Assembly (NCBI GenBank): GCA_905233945.1
Contig: CAJOFY010000007.1
Coordinates: 1 to 51,221, forward strand
DNA: 51,221 nt
Direction of reading: 5' to 3'
DNA from: an uncultured bacterium
Lineage (GTDB): Bacteria; UBP6; UBA1177
Shown here: positions 14,133 to 20,281 of the stretch, piece by piece
Layout: each line of letters begins with the position of its first letter
Numbering within the stretch: the first letter of the stretch is position 1
Notes under the pieces: model-generated
Told to the model about the DNA's origin: nothing
The model's input: the letters and a program-made list of their open reading frames with translations, nothing else
The model's database searches: none
Made by a program: the position numbers and the translations under genes

Positions 14133-15467
14133 ATGCTGGAAACAGGTTCGATACTTCAATCTGAGGCAGGCCCAATCACTATTCTCAAATTTCTGAACAA
14201 AGGCTCGCAGGCAGAAGTCTATGAAGTCAAAATAAAAATAAAAGGAAAAGAAGGCCGGTTTGCTCTCAAACGGTTTGCCCTCAAATATTATTTTGAAGAA
14301 CACTGCAAGGATCCGAAATTCAAAGACAATCTGCTTTCTGTAATTGAAAAGAAAAAACCTACCAACCGCTTCATCTGGCCTCTTCACTTTGTAGAAAACG
14401 GGAATCGTTTCGGATACCTTATGAATTTGCTTCCATCGGAATACCAGGCTTTATCCGGCTGCTTTTCAGGCAAACTCAGGATAAACGACAATATAAAATT
14501 CAAATTCTGCATAAATATGTGTGACGCTTTCCATCATCTGCATTATGATGAGGATTGCAGTTACAAAGACATTTCCCCTAAAAATATTTATATAAATCCC
14601 AGCAATGGAAATGTTCTGATAATTGACAACGACAACATTACTCCGAACAGAGACACAGCCGGTATCAGAAAATTTGTTAAAGGCACACCTGGATATATGG
14701 CTCCGGAACTGTTTGAAAATCCGGAAACAATACCTTCTAAGCAAACCGATTTCTATTCTGCCGGCGTATTGATTTTCAAATTATTTATGGGAATCGATCC
14801 CTTTGAACCTCTTGACAGCTCGAATTCTGACAGCAGTTCCCCGGTCATGGACATTTCATCTTTCTATAATCCAAAAAACAACAGATTCATTTTTCAAGAA
14901 ATAATAGAAAACAAAGGTGTCAATGCGGAAAGAGATAAAGCAAAACTTTGGTTTTCATATCCGGAATCCGTAAGAAATTTGTTCAAAAGGCTTTTTACAG
15001 AAGGAATCAACGATCCGTGGAAACGACCGAGCTGCGAAGAATGGAGAGATGAGTTGATCAAATGTCTTGCAGCTGCTTATTCCTGCCCCGACCCCAATTG
15101 TTCCTTTTCATCATTTTTAAATGAAAATGAACTCATGAAAAACAACGGAAAAATTCACTGTCCTCTCTGCAATAAAGATTTCACTCTTCCTATCATGAAA
15201 TCAGGAAAAGACACGCTTGTTGTAATGAATGACAAGGAAGAGATCTATTCCGGCTATTTCGAGGATTTAAGACGAAACGAATCCAGAATGGAAATCGTTA
15301 TGACAGCCGAACTGACGAAAAAAGGACTAAGGCTTTTAAACAAGTCAAATTACAGCATAACTCACCACGGAAAAACAATAAAAAAAGAGGAACACACTGA
15401 TTTTATAAAAGATTTGGATTCATTAACTGTTGACGGCAAAGTATATAAGATTATTCTTCCGGTGTAG
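14133..15467 (+). CDS. Ser/Thr protein kinase with C-terminal zinc ribbon
   Basis: The 444-residue protein has a eukaryotic-type kinase domain at about 13-310. It shows a glycine loop LNKGSQAEVYEV (21-32), ATP-anchoring lysine in FALK (Lys46), a catalytic loop YKDISPKN with Asp146, a metal-binding IDNDN (Asp165/Asp167) in place of DFG, and GTPGYMAPEL in the activation segment. A four-cysteine zinc ribbon follows (C318, C323, C343, C346), then a beta-rich tail of ~95 residues. HRD is changed to YKD, and DFG to DND; both catalytic Asp positions are kept, so activity is plausible. Kinase-VWA pairs are known from the TerY-P triads and E. coli YegI/YegL, but the PP2C phosphatase of those triads is absent here. 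AAGGAT precedes the start by about eight bases. Confidence 0.83.
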   Translation: MLETGSILQSEAGPITILKFLNKGSQAEVYEVKIKIKGKEGRFALKRFALKYYFEEHCKDPKFKDNLLSVIEKKKPTNRFIWPLHFVENGNRFGYLMNLLPSEYQALSGCFSGKLRINDNIKFKFCINMCDAFHHLHYDEDCSYKDISPKNIYINPSNGNVLIIDNDNITPNRDTAGIRKFVKGTPGYMAPELFENPETIPSKQTDFYSAGVLIFKLFMGIDPFEPLDSSNSDSSSPVMDISSFYNPKNNRFIFQEIIENKGVNAERDKAKLWFSYPESVRNLFKRLFTEGINDPWKRPSCEEWRDELIKCLAAAYSCPDPNCSFSSFLNENELMKNNGKIHCPLCNKDFTLPIMKSGKDTLVVMNDKEEIYSGYFEDLRRNESRMEIVMTAELTKKGLRLLNKSNYSITHHGKTIKKEEHTDFIKDLDSLTVDGKVYKIILPV

Positions 15468-15495: not shown

Positions 15496-16989
15496 ATGAG
15501 TATAAAGAACATCGTTTCCAACTTTGAAATTAAAAGGCATCAGTTTGAAATAATCTATGCGATAGACACTTCCGCATCAATGTGCGGTGAAAAGATAGAA
15601 TCTGTCAACAACGCCATGCACGAACTGGAAAGATTATTAAAAGAGGAAGCCGAGAAAAACAGCGATCAGGTTCAGATTTATATAAGAATCATCACTTTCG
15701 GCGGAGATCAGGCTGTATGGCACCTGGAAGAGCGGACCCGCATTGAAGATTTTTCCTATAAGAATATAAATGTCGTCAGAGGCGGACGAACACCGATGGG
15801 AAGCGCGTTCAATTTACTGAATCAGGCACTTAATGCTTCCTGTCTGCCGAATATTATGTTTAAACCGCTGTTGGTCCTCCTCTCCGACGGATGGCCTACC
15901 GATGAATGGGAAAATGAATTGGATCAGCTGATACAACATTCATGGGGCAGAAAAGCCACAAAAGTCGCTATTGCTATCGGAGAACAGGCAGACAAAGAGA
16001 TCCTGACAAAATTTACAACTAATCCTAAACAGGTTTTCGAAGCAAATGATTCTGCCGCAATCATAAAAACTATTGAATGGACCTCAACAATAATTTCAGC
16101 GACTGTTCTCGGTGAATATACGACTTATCCTGTATCATATATGTTGAATGGCAACCAGGATGTATTCTCATCAGAAAAATATTCAACAACCGATAGTAAT
16201 GCACAAATCATCGTTGACAAAGCAAACAGGGTTCTTGAACTCTACTTTGAAAACAAAAAACATGACTCATTGATTGAAAGCAAATCCTTTTTCGATGAAA
16301 TGAATATTTTCTTATTCGGAAAATCGGATTTTTCCCATATTCCTTCCACTCACGAAGATGAACTAAAAGATTCATTCATGGAAAAATTCAATAAGGATTC
16401 GGTGAAAATAGTAAAATATACAGAATTTACTCTTGCATATAGAAGGGTAAAGGAATACTCAAAAGAATGCGACATTCCAGAAATCGGATATGATCACAAC
16501 ATCAATTTTATAGACTGGTTCTTATTTGAGAACAAGATTATAAAAAAACGTAACAAAAAATTGCATGATGCAATAAATGTTTATGCAAACCAAAAAGACC
16601 TTTTTTTTCAAAACGAGGAAAAAAATAAATTTGAACGTAATTCAAGATCTTATAATTTTTTCTCCAGCGCAAACAGAGCCGAGACCCGTTTTATTAAAGA
16701 CAAAGATCTCTCCTCTTCCCTCATTCAAACAAGAAAAGCGGTAGAACAATACATTAAGGCAATGTATGAAAATGAATTCAAACAGGAAGCCCCGGACTCA
16801 CCTGCTCAGTGTCTTAAAGGATTAAAAAAAGTAATAACAAAAACATATTCTCACGAACTCTGGCCTTTGATAAAAAGAGGTAACGCAAATGCCCATGACT
16901 GCTATTCGACATACGATTTTGCAGTCATTCACGGTTTGGAAATGCTGAAAGAATGTGCCGGACAGATAAACAAATGGGGAAATAAATGA
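15496..16989 (+). CDS. TerY/YegL-like VWA protein with HEPN-like C-terminal domain
   Basis: The 497-residue protein begins with a von Willebrand A domain (about 15-215). Its metal-ion-dependent adhesion site is intact: DTSAS (Asp24, Ser26, Ser28), Thr99 in GGRTPMGS and Asp131 in LLSDGWPTDEW. The order and spacing match TerY/YegL proteins. A middle region (about 220-400) has no recognisable family. The last ~90 residues are helical and contain RKAVEQYIKAMYENEF and LIKRGNANAHDC. They resemble DUF4145/HEPN domains, and R461-x5-H467 fits the Rx4-6H motif of HEPN ribonucleases. No signal peptide or membrane helix is seen. The stop overlaps the next start (ATGA), so expression is coupled. The HEPN call is by eye and needs profile comparison. 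Confidence 0.75.
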   Translation: MSIKNIVSNFEIKRHQFEIIYAIDTSASMCGEKIESVNNAMHELERLLKEEAEKNSDQVQIYIRIITFGGDQAVWHLEERTRIEDFSYKNINVVRGGRTPMGSAFNLLNQALNASCLPNIMFKPLLVLLSDGWPTDEWENELDQLIQHSWGRKATKVAIAIGEQADKEILTKFTTNPKQVFEANDSAAIIKTIEWTSTIISATVLGEYTTYPVSYMLNGNQDVFSSEKYSTTDSNAQIIVDKANRVLELYFENKKHDSLIESKSFFDEMNIFLFGKSDFSHIPSTHEDELKDSFMEKFNKDSVKIVKYTEFTLAYRRVKEYSKECDIPEIGYDHNINFIDWFLFENKIIKKRNKKLHDAINVYANQKDLFFQNEEKNKFERNSRSYNFFSSANRAETRFIKDKDLSSSLIQTRKAVEQYIKAMYENEFKQEAPDSPAQCLKGLKKVITKTYSHELWPLIKRGNANAHDCYSTYDFAVIHGLEMLKECAGQINKWGNK

Positions 16990-18806
16990 ACCGGATCAAT
17001 AACGAAAAAGAAAAAATTCAACAAATAGAATGCCAGTATTGCGGTGTTCTTGTAAATGTAAACGAAAAAATCTGCCCTGAATGCAGGAAGCCTCTGCATC
17101 AGAGCAATAACGAGATCCGCGATTTCAAAACTGCAATAGAAATAAACGGTTACAAAAACAATGAAGAAAAGCCGTCAGAACATATACCTGAGAAGAGAAT
17201 AGTGTTTAATATGAAAATATCTCTGTCACGGCACAAGATGATATTTTTACTTGCTTCACTTATTATAATTCTGACAGCAATTTTCACAATCGTGATAATA
17301 AGTAATGATTCTTTAAAAAAGGCAGAAAAACTCTTTCTTAAAGGAGATTTTGATCCGGCTTTTAAAATATTTTCCGAACTTGCGGATAACGGAAACAGCA
17401 GGGCAATGTATTATTTAGGAGAATATTATACTCACGGCATCGGAAGTACTCACATAGATAACGAAAAGGCTTCCGAATGGAGGGAAAAAGGGGCTGAGAC
17501 CGGAGATATTCTGGCTAAACTGAATATAGCGGTATCACTTCCGGAAGATTCGGAATTAAAAAAAGATATCTTGAACAATCTCTTTCCGTCTGTGCTGGAA
17601 ATGGCTGAAAACGGCAATGCTAGGGCTCAAAGCGAACTGGCTGGTTTGTACGAACATGGCTGGGGAATTCAACAAGATTTGGAAAAAGCTCGTATTTGGT
17701 ATGAAAAAGCGATTGAAAAAGGAGATATCATTGCCACTCACAACTTGGGAAGACTCTACTTTAAAGGAAGCAACGAGATAAAAGAAAACAGGGACAAAGC
17801 ATACAATTTAATATTAACATCGTCGGAAAAAGGTTTTCCTGGAGCATGGTTCAACCTCGGTTCATTTTATAAAGACGGATTTAATGTAAAACCGGATCAA
17901 CAAGAAGCCTTTAAATGGTTTTTAAAGGCGGCAGAACAAGGTCATGCCATAGCACAGAACTATGTCGCCTTTTATTCTAAAGACGGAGTCGGAACCAAAC
18001 AGAATAAAATCAAAGCTTTTGAATGGTATAAAAAATCGGCCGAACAAGGGCTACACGCCGCTCAGTATGGTCTTGCCAATGCCTATTTCTACGGTGAAGG
18101 CATTGCCAAAGACAAAAGTGAAGCTTTCAAGTGGTATATGAAATCTGCGCGTCAGGATTTCCACCTCGCACAATACCGCGTCGGGGAATGTTATTATAAC
18201 GGCGACGGTGTGGAAGAAGACAAAACTCTTGCTTTTAACTGGTATAAACAGGCAGCGGAACACAACAATTTAAAGGCGATGATTCGAATCGGCGAATGTT
18301 ATCTCCGCGGAGACTGCACTCAGATGAACGAAAACGAAGCATTCAAATGGTTTATGAAAGCAGCAGAACCAGAGAACCAAAACGGAGATCCTGAAGCTCA
18401 ATATTTAGTCGGAATATCTTATGACAAAGGAATCGGAGTGGCTGCGGATAAACAAAAGGCTTTCGAATGGCTGAAAAAATCGTCAGACCAGGGATATTTG
18501 AAAGCCCAAATCCTGACAGCACTCTGTTACGAAAACGGAATCGGGATCACTGCCGATAAAACGGAAGCCTTCAAATTATGGCTAAATACTGCTATACGAA
18601 AACATAATCCTTTCGCTCAATATAAACTTGCTTGTCGCTTTCATGAGCAAGGAAAACACGAAGAGGCAAAGAAGTGGCTTAGAAACGCGGCAGCTCAGGG
18701 AAACAAAGAGGCTAAGGAAAGCCTTTTCAAATGGTATAAAGAAACAACATGGCGCGATTCCGCTGATGACGAACTTTATCAAATGCACCTTAAACTTTCG
18801 GAATAA
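16986..18806 (+). CDS. Zinc-ribbon, membrane-anchored Sel1-repeat protein
   Basis: The 606-residue protein opens with a small zinc ribbon (C16, C19, C30, C33). A hydrophilic stretch and one transmembrane helix (about 85-106, IFLLASLIIILTAIFTIVII) follow, with basic residues on its N-terminal side, which predicts the ribbon inside and the rest outside the cytoplasm. About a dozen Sel1 repeats fill residues ~115-595, for example AFKWFLKAAEQGHAIAQNYV and AFEWYKKSAEQGLHAAQYGL. Sel1 repeats are TPR-like binding scaffolds that often act as sensors or adaptors. Translation is coupled to the VWA gene by a four-base overlap. It may be the membrane sensor or scaffold for the kinase/VWA pair; that is inference. 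Confidence 0.8.
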   Translation: MNRINNEKEKIQQIECQYCGVLVNVNEKICPECRKPLHQSNNEIRDFKTAIEINGYKNNEEKPSEHIPEKRIVFNMKISLSRHKMIFLLASLIIILTAIFTIVIISNDSLKKAEKLFLKGDFDPAFKIFSELADNGNSRAMYYLGEYYTHGIGSTHIDNEKASEWREKGAETGDILAKLNIAVSLPEDSELKKDILNNLFPSVLEMAENGNARAQSELAGLYEHGWGIQQDLEKARIWYEKAIEKGDIIATHNLGRLYFKGSNEIKENRDKAYNLILTSSEKGFPGAWFNLGSFYKDGFNVKPDQQEAFKWFLKAAEQGHAIAQNYVAFYSKDGVGTKQNKIKAFEWYKKSAEQGLHAAQYGLANAYFYGEGIAKDKSEAFKWYMKSARQDFHLAQYRVGECYYNGDGVEEDKTLAFNWYKQAAEHNNLKAMIRIGECYLRGDCTQMNENEAFKWFMKAAEPENQNGDPEAQYLVGISYDKGIGVAADKQKAFEWLKKSSDQGYLKAQILTALCYENGIGITADKTEAFKLWLNTAIRKHNPFAQYKLACRFHEQGKHEEAKKWLRNAAAQGNKEAKESLFKWYKETTWRDSADDELYQMHLKLSE

Positions 18807-18811
18807 TTATT

Positions 18812-20281
18812 TTGGTCAAGAACAGATTAGCTGATGAAAAAGTTCTAAATTCTGACAATCCCGAAGCACTGCACTGGTCGGCTCTATCCAAATATTGCGG
18901 CGTAGGGACAGCAGAAAATGAGGAAGAAGCGTTTAAATTGTTTGAGATTTCCGCCAAAAATGGATATACCCCAAGCCAAAGAGCCCTCGCCTTTTGTTAC
19001 AAAAACGGTATCGGTGTAAAAAAAGACCTGTTCTCTTCTTTGAGATGGCAGACAATCGCAAAAATACGCAGCATTAACAAAATAAAACTGCTTGTAACTT
19101 CTGTTTTCTTTTTATTTTTCATATTTTGTTTTTATCTAACCTTTTTCACGACATTTGTTGCAGAAAAACTGCTGCTGAAAGGTTATTTCAATGCATCATT
19201 CTATTTATTCAAAATATTGGAAAAAGAGGATAATCCTAAAAGTTATTATTTTTTGGGGTTGCATCATTTGTATGCTTTAGGAAATTTGAATCAAGATGCT
19301 GAAAAAGCTGAAATATTTATGAGAAAAGGTATGAATGCAAAGGATAATCTCGCCACTTTCAGCACTGCATTTTTTCTCACCGAAAAACCAGAAGAAAAAG
19401 AAACTATTATCAGAAATACTTTTAACACGATCCTAAAAATGGCTGAAAACGGGGATCCTTTCGCCCAAAACGAAACAGGAAAAATCTATTATGAAACTGA
19501 AAATTATGACAAAGCTTTTTACTGGTGGTCGGAATCGGCGAAACAGGGATATGTTGCAGCACATAACAATATTGCTTTATGTTATAGCGAAGGCAAAGGA
19601 GTGGCTCAAAACAAAGAAAAGGCTGTCGAAATATATAAAAAACTTGCCGAAAAAAATAATTTCATAACATCACAAAAAAATCTGGCCAACTATTATTACA
19701 ACAAAAATAATAAGAAATTATCACCGGAATCTTGTGAATGGTATGAACAGGCCGCGTTACAAGGGGATACAGATGCTCAAAACAAACTGGGTCTTTGCTA
19801 TAACAAAGGTTATGAAAACTGGAAAGCAAGAAATGAATTTGAAAGCTGCAAATGGTTTGAAAAAGCAGCAGTTAAAGGTCACACCGTAGCTCAGTTTTAT
19901 ATCGGGCAATGCTATTATAAGGGGGTCGGAGTCAATCAAAAAAATACGGAAAAAGGATGTGAATGGTTTGAAAAGGCTGCACTTCAAGGACTCGCAGAAG
20001 CCCAATATAATTTGGCAATTTGCTATAGCAAAGGAGATGGGAAAGAAAAGAATAAAGTCGAAAGCTGTAAATGGTATGAAAAAGCAGCAAACAATGGTGT
20101 TGCGGATGCTCAATACCGTTTGTTCCGTTGTTACTTTGACAAGGACGGTTTAGGGAAAAACGATGAAAAAGCCAAATACTGGCTCAGAAAAGCGGCCCGG
20201 CAAAATCACAGGGAAGCTATAAATATGCTTCGTGGAGCATTCAACGAAAAAGTTGATCCTGAAGAGATCGAATCAAAATAG
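18812..20281 (+). CDS. Second membrane Sel1-repeat protein
   Basis: The 489-residue protein starts at TTG 18812, five bases after the previous stop. No good Shine-Dalgarno is seen; an in-frame stop at 18791 limits alternatives, so the start depends on coupling. At least one Sel1 repeat (about 20-75) precedes a transmembrane helix (about 93-115, LLVTSVFFLFFIFCFYLTFF) with basic residues before it. About eight more repeats follow (WYEQAALQGDTDAQNKLGLC, WFEKAALQGLAEAQYNLAIC). Repeats therefore lie on both sides of the membrane. There is no zinc ribbon, unlike its neighbour, of which it is probably a diverged paralogue. The stop is immediately followed by the ABC-F gene remnant. Confidence 0.75.
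   Translation: MVKNRLADEKVLNSDNPEALHWSALSKYCGVGTAENEEEAFKLFEISAKNGYTPSQRALAFCYKNGIGVKKDLFSSLRWQTIAKIRSINKIKLLVTSVFFLFFIFCFYLTFFTTFVAEKLLLKGYFNASFYLFKILEKEDNPKSYYFLGLHHLYALGNLNQDAEKAEIFMRKGMNAKDNLATFSTAFFLTEKPEEKETIIRNTFNTILKMAENGDPFAQNETGKIYYETENYDKAFYWWSESAKQGYVAAHNNIALCYSEGKGVAQNKEKAVEIYKKLAEKNNFITSQKNLANYYYNKNNKKLSPESCEWYEQAALQGDTDAQNKLGLCYNKGYENWKARNEFESCKWFEKAAVKGHTVAQFYIGQCYYKGVGVNQKNTEKGCEWFEKAALQGLAEAQYNLAICYSKGDGKEKNKVESCKWYEKAANNGVADAQYRLFRCYFDKDGLGKNDEKAKYWLRKAARQNHREAINMLRGAFNEKVDPEEIESK

What the first reader, a model, noticed from the sequence alone, without database searches (positions are those of the whole stretch)
16710..16989. HEPN-like domain with Rx5H motif fused to a VWA domain
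The last ~90 residues of the VWA protein form a helical block with R461-GNANA-H467, matching both the HEPN ribonuclease pattern Rx4-6H and the 'GN.aaH' pattern of DUF4145. HEPN RNases are typical effectors of toxin-antitoxin and abortive-infection systems.
Basis: partly seen in the sequence, partly recalled or inferred. Interest (0 to 1): 0.68.

Follow-up and report, generated by a model that had tools for sequence, protein, structure and literature searches.

The report
Kinase-linked VWA protein with HEPN-like domain
A bacterial signalling protein of a type that normally works with a protein kinase and a phosphatase has here an extra tail that looks like a distant relative of HEPN RNA-cutting domains, which would make it an unusual, still untested, stress or anti-virus switch.

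Summary
In detail: the 497-aa VWA protein (15496-16989) ends in a helical block with R461-x5-H467. The motif alone means little (Rx4-6H in 21% of shuffles), and Pfam's DUF4145 model does not report it. A 34-member DUF4145 profile built here does: it aligns residues 387-491 with GN and H in register, above 400 shuffles and 900 real chunks, and ranks this ORF first among all window frames. A larger, phage-heavy profile gave weaker support. An alignment-guided AlphaFold model resembles HEPN structures most, weakly. A divergent HEPN/DUF4145-like domain is likely. RNase activity is uncertain: R461 lies at H-6, DUF4145 members carry Arg at H-8 or H-5, and no orthologue was found. The gene belongs to a known kinase-VWA-PP2C (TerY-P-like) module often near defence genes. 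None of 68 VWA relatives shows such a domain; here the PP2C gene and the relatives' C-terminal Trp are missing, and two membrane Sel1 genes follow. Best reading: a kinase-controlled VWA carrying its own HEPN effector. New variant of a known kind.

The parts
14133..15467 (+). Protein kinase (444 aa) with a C-terminal Cys4 (zinc-ribbon-like) stretch and a further C-terminal tail; the conserved K51, D146, N151, D165 are kept
   Evidence: PF00069 E 6.4e-17; invariant residues and four Cys in alignment A1 with two relatives
15496..16989 (+). VWA - unknown middle - HEPN-like protein, 497 aa
   Evidence: continuous frame
15550..16062 (+). VWA domain, residues 19-189, with DTSAS (24-28), Thr and Asp of a MIDAS-like motif visible in the sequence
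   Evidence: PF00092 E 1.2e-8; residues read directly
16093..16653 (+). Middle region, residues 200-386, no family found
   Evidence: no Pfam, NCBIfam or PADLOC hit there; PHROGs weak only (E 0.35); no relative in 28 phylum genomes apart from one chance-level match
16654..16968 (+). HEPN/DUF4145-like domain, residues 387-491
   Evidence: hhalign 29.0, P 4.4e-5 against a 34-member DUF4145 profile, with controls; hmmsearch of all window frames ranks this ORF first, E 2.8e-4; models
16744..16758 (+). E417-x3-K421, fitting the Ex3[KR] acidic motif that many HEPN families have
   Evidence: sequence; motif as defined in PMC3710099 section 6
16876..16896 (+). R461-G-N-A-N-A-H467
   Evidence: N463 and H467 invariant in alignment A3 with 13 DUF4145 members
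16986..18806 (+). Zinc-ribbon-like N-terminus, transmembrane stretch near residues 84-104, then Sel1 repeats (606 aa); start overlaps the VWA stop codon (ATGA)
   Evidence: PF08238 E 2.2e-84, 11 stretches; weak zinc-ribbon hits below cut-off; hydropathy; coordinates
18812..20281 (+). Second Sel1-repeat protein with a transmembrane stretch near residues 91-118 (489 aa, TTG start)
   Evidence: PF08238 E 3.5e-57, 9 stretches; hydropathy

Best explanation
Residues 387-491 form a divergent HEPN domain of the DUF4145 type, fused to the VWA adaptor of a kinase-VWA-PP2C (TerY-P-like) signalling module. Shown here: the gene order kinase / VWA-HEPN-like / ZnR-TM-Sel1 / TM-Sel1; homology of kinase and VWA to the triad; absence of a PP2C gene from the operon; profile similarity of the tail to DUF4145. 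Inferred: the membrane Sel1 proteins sense or scaffold a signal, the kinase phosphorylates the VWA protein or its partners, and this releases or dimerises the HEPN domain, which cuts or binds RNA and slows translation as a stress or anti-phage response. The fused effector would take the output position that partner genes fill in relatives.
For: DUF4145 profile matches the tail with GN..H in register: 21.7 with 14 members (0 of 500 shuffles, 0 of 202 real chunks) and 29.0, P 4.4e-5, with 34 members (0 of 400 shuffles, best 19.4; 0 of 900 chunks, best 20.1; the full 497-aa query picks the same segment). 24 other family profiles score at most 21.6 and the reversed query 12.9. A hmmsearch of the window's six frames, not aimed at this ORF, ranks it first, E 2.8e-4, next 0.24. 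The alignment-guided model's nearest solved structures are mostly HEPN: 12 of the first 17 VIA rows, Z 5.0-6.2, 82-103 residues aligned, and 10 of the first 20 Foldseek rows. E417-x3-K421 fits Ex3[KR]. Module: kinase cluster in 73 of 80 loci, PP2C 58 of 80, all three clusters 51 of 80; BrxL 15 of 80 and PglZ 6 of 80. Triads of the same phylum sit beside MkoA-like SF1 helicases (L036, L038). The HEPN survey lists DUF4145 fused to Sel1, zinc ribbon and TM.
Against: Pfam's own DUF4145 model does not report it: nothing at E<=5 for the protein, no match in the own genome. The score (29.0) is below every true member in leave-one-out (35.6 to 133.5). With 131 members, mostly phage-contig sequences, it falls to 23.4 and 1 of 500 chunks scores higher (25.4). 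The single-sequence model (pLDDT 68) finds no HEPN among the 50 listed rows of each of three searches. The second model (pLDDT 67) borrows its fold from eight DUF4145 rows that I aligned to it, and no fold match has E below 0.6. R461 is out of register with the Arg of DUF4145. No orthologue shows selection on the domain. No direct evidence of defence, RNase activity or phosphorylation.
Confidence: 0.5

Rival explanations
1. The domain is HEPN/DUF4145-like but not catalytic: a nucleic-acid-binding or dimerising module that positions the VWA protein, with no RNase output.
For: R461 is at H-6, where 0 of 30 DUF4145 members have Arg; the usual positions hold I459 (H-8) and G462 (H-5). The residue after R is Gly, not N, D or H. 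The HEPN survey describes non-catalytic HEPN domains that bind RNA (PMC3710099, passages).
Against: N463, H467, the formal Rx5H spacing and E417-x3-K421 are all kept. The survey accepts spacers of 4-6 and notes that other basic residues may stand in for R.
Confidence: 0.3
2. The tail is an unrelated helical bundle; the DUF4145 similarity is a coincidence of amphipathic helices and a GNxxAH-like string.
For: Single-sequence model has no HEPN match among listed rows; Pfam DUF4145 silent; larger profile weaker, one real chunk above it; Rx4-6H by chance 21%.
Against: Domain-long, in-register match far above shuffles, real chunks and 24 other profiles; first of all window frames in a search not aimed at it.
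Confidence: 0.2

Closest known systems
DUF4145 (PF13643), HEPN superfamily
   Same: Helix pattern, Arg in the first long helix, GN-x3-H at the start of the last helix; the survey reports DUF4145 fused to Sel1, zinc ribbon and TM and near TerD systems
   Different: Below Pfam's reporting level; the motif Arg is at H-6, not H-8 or H-5; fused to a VWA domain
TerY-P triad / kinase-PP2C-vWA cassette (PMC11090510 passages; PMC7159879 section 29)
   Same: Kinase with C-terminal zinc-ribbon-like stretch next to a TerY-like VWA
   Different: No PP2C gene in the operon; VWA protein is 497 aa against a median of 245; lacks the C-terminal Trp of relatives
Type II / III-A CoCoNuTs (PMC11090510, passages)
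   Same: TerY-P proteins encoded together with HEPN-containing proteins
   Different: There the HEPN domain is in CnuE, a separate protein with a CnuH partner; no such genes in this operon
RNase L / Ire1 KEN (HEPN) domains (PMC3710099 table passage)
   Same: A HEPN RNase next to a kinase
   Different: There kinase and HEPN are one chain; here the kinase is a separate protein and the HEPN-like domain is on the VWA
MoxR-vWA systems with effectors fused to the vWA (PMC12839542 passage)
   Same: vWA carrying an effector as an architectural principle
   Different: Effectors named in that passage are peptidases, with a MoxR ATPase; neither is here

Membership tests
HEPN superfamily | Rx4-6H motif | tested here: met
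   R461-x5-H467; 21% chance level in shuffles; Arg out of register with DUF4145
HEPN superfamily | Polar residue (N, D or H) right after the Arg, typical | tested here: not met
   Gly462 follows R461; criterion from PMC3710099 section 6, stated there as typical, not obligatory
HEPN superfamily | Ex3[KR] acidic motif in many families | tested here: met
   E417-Q-Y-I-K421; short motif, weak alone
HEPN superfamily | Four-helix HEPN fold | tested here: inconclusive
   Single-sequence model: no HEPN among listed rows; alignment-guided model: HEPN entries lead, Z 5.0-6.2, no E below 0.6
HEPN superfamily | R and H conserved in orthologues | not testable with these tools
   No orthologue of the tail found; own plus one weak match in 28 genomes; own plus 3 weak matches in 386 genomes, all three judged chance
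HEPN superfamily | RNase activity | not testable with these tools
   needs protein
DUF4145 (PF13643) | Match to the Pfam model above its cut-off | tested here: not met
   not reported at E<=5; no match in own genome
DUF4145 (PF13643) | GN-x3-H in register and domain-long profile similarity | tested here: met
   weaker with the 131-member profile
TerY-P / kinase-VWA-PP2C triad | Kinase with C-terminal zinc-ribbon-like stretch next to a TerY-like VWA | tested here: met
TerY-P / kinase-VWA-PP2C triad | PP2C gene in the operon | tested here: not met
   the operon's four genes are kinase, VWA, Sel1, Sel1; the genome's two PP2C_2 matches lie on other contigs

The most novel reading that the evidence does not exclude
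The phosphatase arm of a kinase-VWA-PP2C switch has been lost and the VWA protein now carries its own HEPN RNase, so that the kinase directly gates an RNA-cutting effector docked to two membrane Sel1 proteins: a bacterial counterpart, in two chains, of the RNase L / Ire1 kinase-HEPN logic.
Probability: 0.25. Interest if true: 0.7.

Novelty: new variant of a known kind. Interest (0 to 1): 0.45.

Why it matters
TerY-P-like kinase-VWA modules are widespread near defence genes, but what the VWA protein does downstream of the kinase is not stated in the passages I read. A natural fusion of the VWA to a candidate effector names a testable output: RNA cleavage or binding. The conserved C-terminal Trp of the VWA relatives, missing here together with the PP2C gene, gives a second simple handle on the mechanism.

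Tried and rejected
Orthologue hunt: P0001 in genome contigs and viral contigs, the tail in viral contigs, plasmids, phages (two Erwinia phage records at E 3, chance) and 386 genomes (three weak matches. L021 lies in a long ORF that I recognise, from memory, as isocitrate-dehydrogenase-like; L022 is antisense to a transposon-like ORF and has stops; L023 overlaps opposite-strand ORFs). In the phylum, one weak match, L019, antisense to two ORFs. No relative of the tail.

Single-sequence fold searched in PDB and viral models: no useful match, no HEPN among the listed rows. Sequence search of PDB with P0001 and with the tail: nothing relevant.

PADLOC SduA hit at residues 397-462 (E 5e-4): followed with one family search; 1 of 146 genomes had SduA, matching only profile positions 157-339, so it did not explain the similarity.

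Empty-site test: I fetched stretches downstream of ftsZ in ten relatives; in none is uup or any operon gene found (four of the ten stretches are under 10 kb, one of them 2.9 kb), so no empty site could be defined.

Alignment A5 (query plus 28 rows of one phage subfamily) misplaced the query's first helix and was not used for folding; I chose eight more diverse rows (alignment A10) whose register agreed with hhalign. That choice favours the HEPN fold and is told as such.

Toxin-antitoxin reading rejected: no antitoxin-like neighbour in the operon.

Full report
What is there. The window gene 15496-16989 encodes 497 residues: a VWA domain at 19-189 (PF00092 E 1.2e-8), a middle region 200-386 without any family hit above noise, and a helical tail. 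The pattern Rx4-6H alone is weak: 21% of shuffles have one in the last 98 residues.

Operon. Kinase (14133-15467), VWA protein, ZnR-TM-Sel1 protein (16986-18806) and TM-Sel1 protein (18812-20281) lie on one strand; the kinase-VWA gap is 28 bases, VWA and first Sel1 gene overlap by 4, and the last gap is 5 (domains; hydropathy). The overlap (ATGA) shows that the tail is read as part of the VWA protein, not as a separate gene. The operon is flanked by an ABC-F-type ATPase gene and by ftsZ/ftsA (names recalled from the sequences).

Is the tail HEPN-like? Standard models say no: no DUF4145 hit at E<=5, HepT-like only at E 0.17. I therefore built DUF4145 profiles from members found by PF13643 in other genomes. 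hhalign of residues 385-497: 21.7 with 14 members, above 500 shuffles (best 17.7) and 202 real 113-aa chunks (best 18.4). With 34 members: 29.0, P 4.4e-5, 98 columns, residues 387-491; 0 of 400 shuffles (best 19.4) and 0 of 900 chunks (best 20.1) reach it, and the whole 497-aa protein as query picks the same segment. 24 other family profiles give at most 21.6, the reversed query 12.9; true members left out one at a time score 35.6-133.5, so the tail is more divergent than any of the 34. With 131 members, 97 of them from viral contigs, the score drops to 23.4; 0 of 200 shuffles but 1 of 500 chunks scores higher (25.4). As a search not aimed at this ORF, hmmsearch over all window frames of 50 codons or more ranks it first with both profiles: E 2.8e-4 (next 0.24) and E 0.0038 (next 0.15). 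I read this as probable, not certain, homology.

Fold. Without an alignment the model has helices 407-429, 436-450, 456-460, 466-495, mean pLDDT 68; its structural matches are assorted helical bundles. With eight diverse DUF4145 rows (A10) the model has helices 386-402, 405-426, 436-450, 456-465, 469-495, mean pLDDT 67, best in residues 425-434 (mean 91). Then HEPN entries lead: 10 of the first 20 Foldseek rows (MntA-HepT entries, 5yep, 2q00, 2jpu, 1o3u), though none below E 0.6, and 12 of the first 17 VIA rows, Z 5.0-6.2, 82-103 residues aligned. 2q00, 1o3u and the AbiA C-terminal domain are HEPN by the survey's table; that 5yep is a HEPN-MNT pair is recalled. These Z values are in the range that the tool calls common for helical bundles, and the rows carry their own fold into the model, so this supports but does not prove.

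Active site. Of 34 DUF4145 members, 30 have a readable N-x3-H motif: Arg at H-8 in 24, at H-5 in 4, never at H-6; H-5 is Gly in 26 (I left out four members without N-x3-H and three further N-x3-H strings outside the motif). The window protein has I459 (H-8), K460, R461 (H-6), G462 (H-5), N463, H467. So N and H agree, Arg does not. The survey allows Rx4-6H, says the next residue is typically N, D or H, and adds an Ex3[KR] acidic motif (PMC3710099 section 6, read in full); E417-x3-K421 fits the latter. RNase activity is therefore open.

Module. The VWA's best relatives on plasmids are VWA and TerY-type proteins, and in five of 99 genomes searched, the own one included, VWA matches were found. 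Kinase relatives found with alignment A1 (80 best loci kept of 558): clustering gives the kinase cluster in 73 of 80, VWA cluster 56, PP2C cluster 58, all three 51; BrxL cluster 15, PglZ cluster 6 (cluster names rest on one representative each, kinase and VWA clusters on homology to the queries). Several loci are short contigs, so these are lower bounds. phmmer finds 68 VWA ORFs in 65 of 80 loci; lengths run from 173 to 455, median 245. I inspected five of the six longest, and the sixth, 404 aa, as the ORF of the same coordinates in L072: none has a HEPN-like tail. Neither the tail itself (residues 201-497, no hit at E 1; residues 385-497, one 76-aa ORF at E 0.028) nor the 34-member DUF4145 profile finds one in the 80 loci; the 131-member profile lists one non-VWA ORF at E 0.01. 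In the same phylum, L036 and L038 hold kinase, PP2C and VWA genes (the L038 PP2C and kinase by resemblance only) beside SF1 helicases like MkoA of Mokosh (E 3.9e-80 and 1.2e-98).

What the window lacks. No PP2C gene is in the operon; the genome's two PP2C_2 matches are on other contigs. 63 of 68 VWA relatives end in Trp, mostly VW or IW; of the other five, two are cut by the contig end, two end in Phe and one looks like a different VWA. Two ORFs of a same-genus relative at the places of its VWA matches (L034) also end in Trp. The window protein does not; its tail is the HEPN-like domain. A link between PP2C and the Trp tail is inference.

Mechanism. Most likely a kinase-VWA switch whose VWA carries its own effector, with membrane Sel1 proteins as sensors or scaffold. 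Shown: gene order, homologies, missing PP2C, profile match. Inferred: phosphorylation control, RNase output, stress or defence role. The papers give the frame: TerY-P triads are hypothesised metal-sensing phosphorylation switches and occur with HEPN-containing CoCoNuTs (PMC11090510, passages); [quoted passage not shown] vWA fused to peptidase effectors in MoxR-vWA systems (PMC12839542, passage); DUF4145 fused to Sel1, zinc ribbon and TM, and in operons with TerD (PMC3710099, passages).

In print? The HEPN survey's main text has no 'vWA' or 'von Willebrand'. Searches for TerY+HEPN+vWA+kinase, von Willebrand+HEPN, VWA+HEPN+fused and TerY-P+vWA led to no description of a VWA-HEPN fusion in the passages I read; I read passages, not whole texts, and most subscription papers, and the 2012 Ter survey, are not held.

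Noticed in passing
L077-L156 (VWA ORFs next to the kinases): 63 of 68 VWA ORFs end in a C-terminal Trp, usually after acidic residues (...DDVW); the others are cut by the contig end (2), end in Phe (2) or are another VWA (1). Possibly a docking tail for the kinase or PP2C.
   Followed up: partly
window 16684-16881 (residues 397-462): PADLOC's Shedu SduA model matches this stretch at positions 83-151 (E 5e-4), before its nuclease part; perhaps a shared helical domain.
   Followed up: partly
L080, L118 and other loci: The kinase-VWA-PP2C triad lies near BREX genes brxL (15 of 80 loci) and pglZ (6 of 80), with a Schlafen/AlbA2 protein in L080.
   Followed up: partly
L036:2447-4057: An AAA-domain protein on the opposite strand near a TerY-type cluster ends in a stretch with RNKYQH, an Rx4H string.
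   Followed up: no
L072:6399-7613 (same coordinates in L129) and L150:7558-8925: VWA genes with large inserts inside the VWA region (404 and 455 aa), the second looking like one VWA inserted in another.
   Followed up: no
window 16093-16653: Middle region of the VWA protein (residues 200-386) matches no family and has no relative found.
   Followed up: partly
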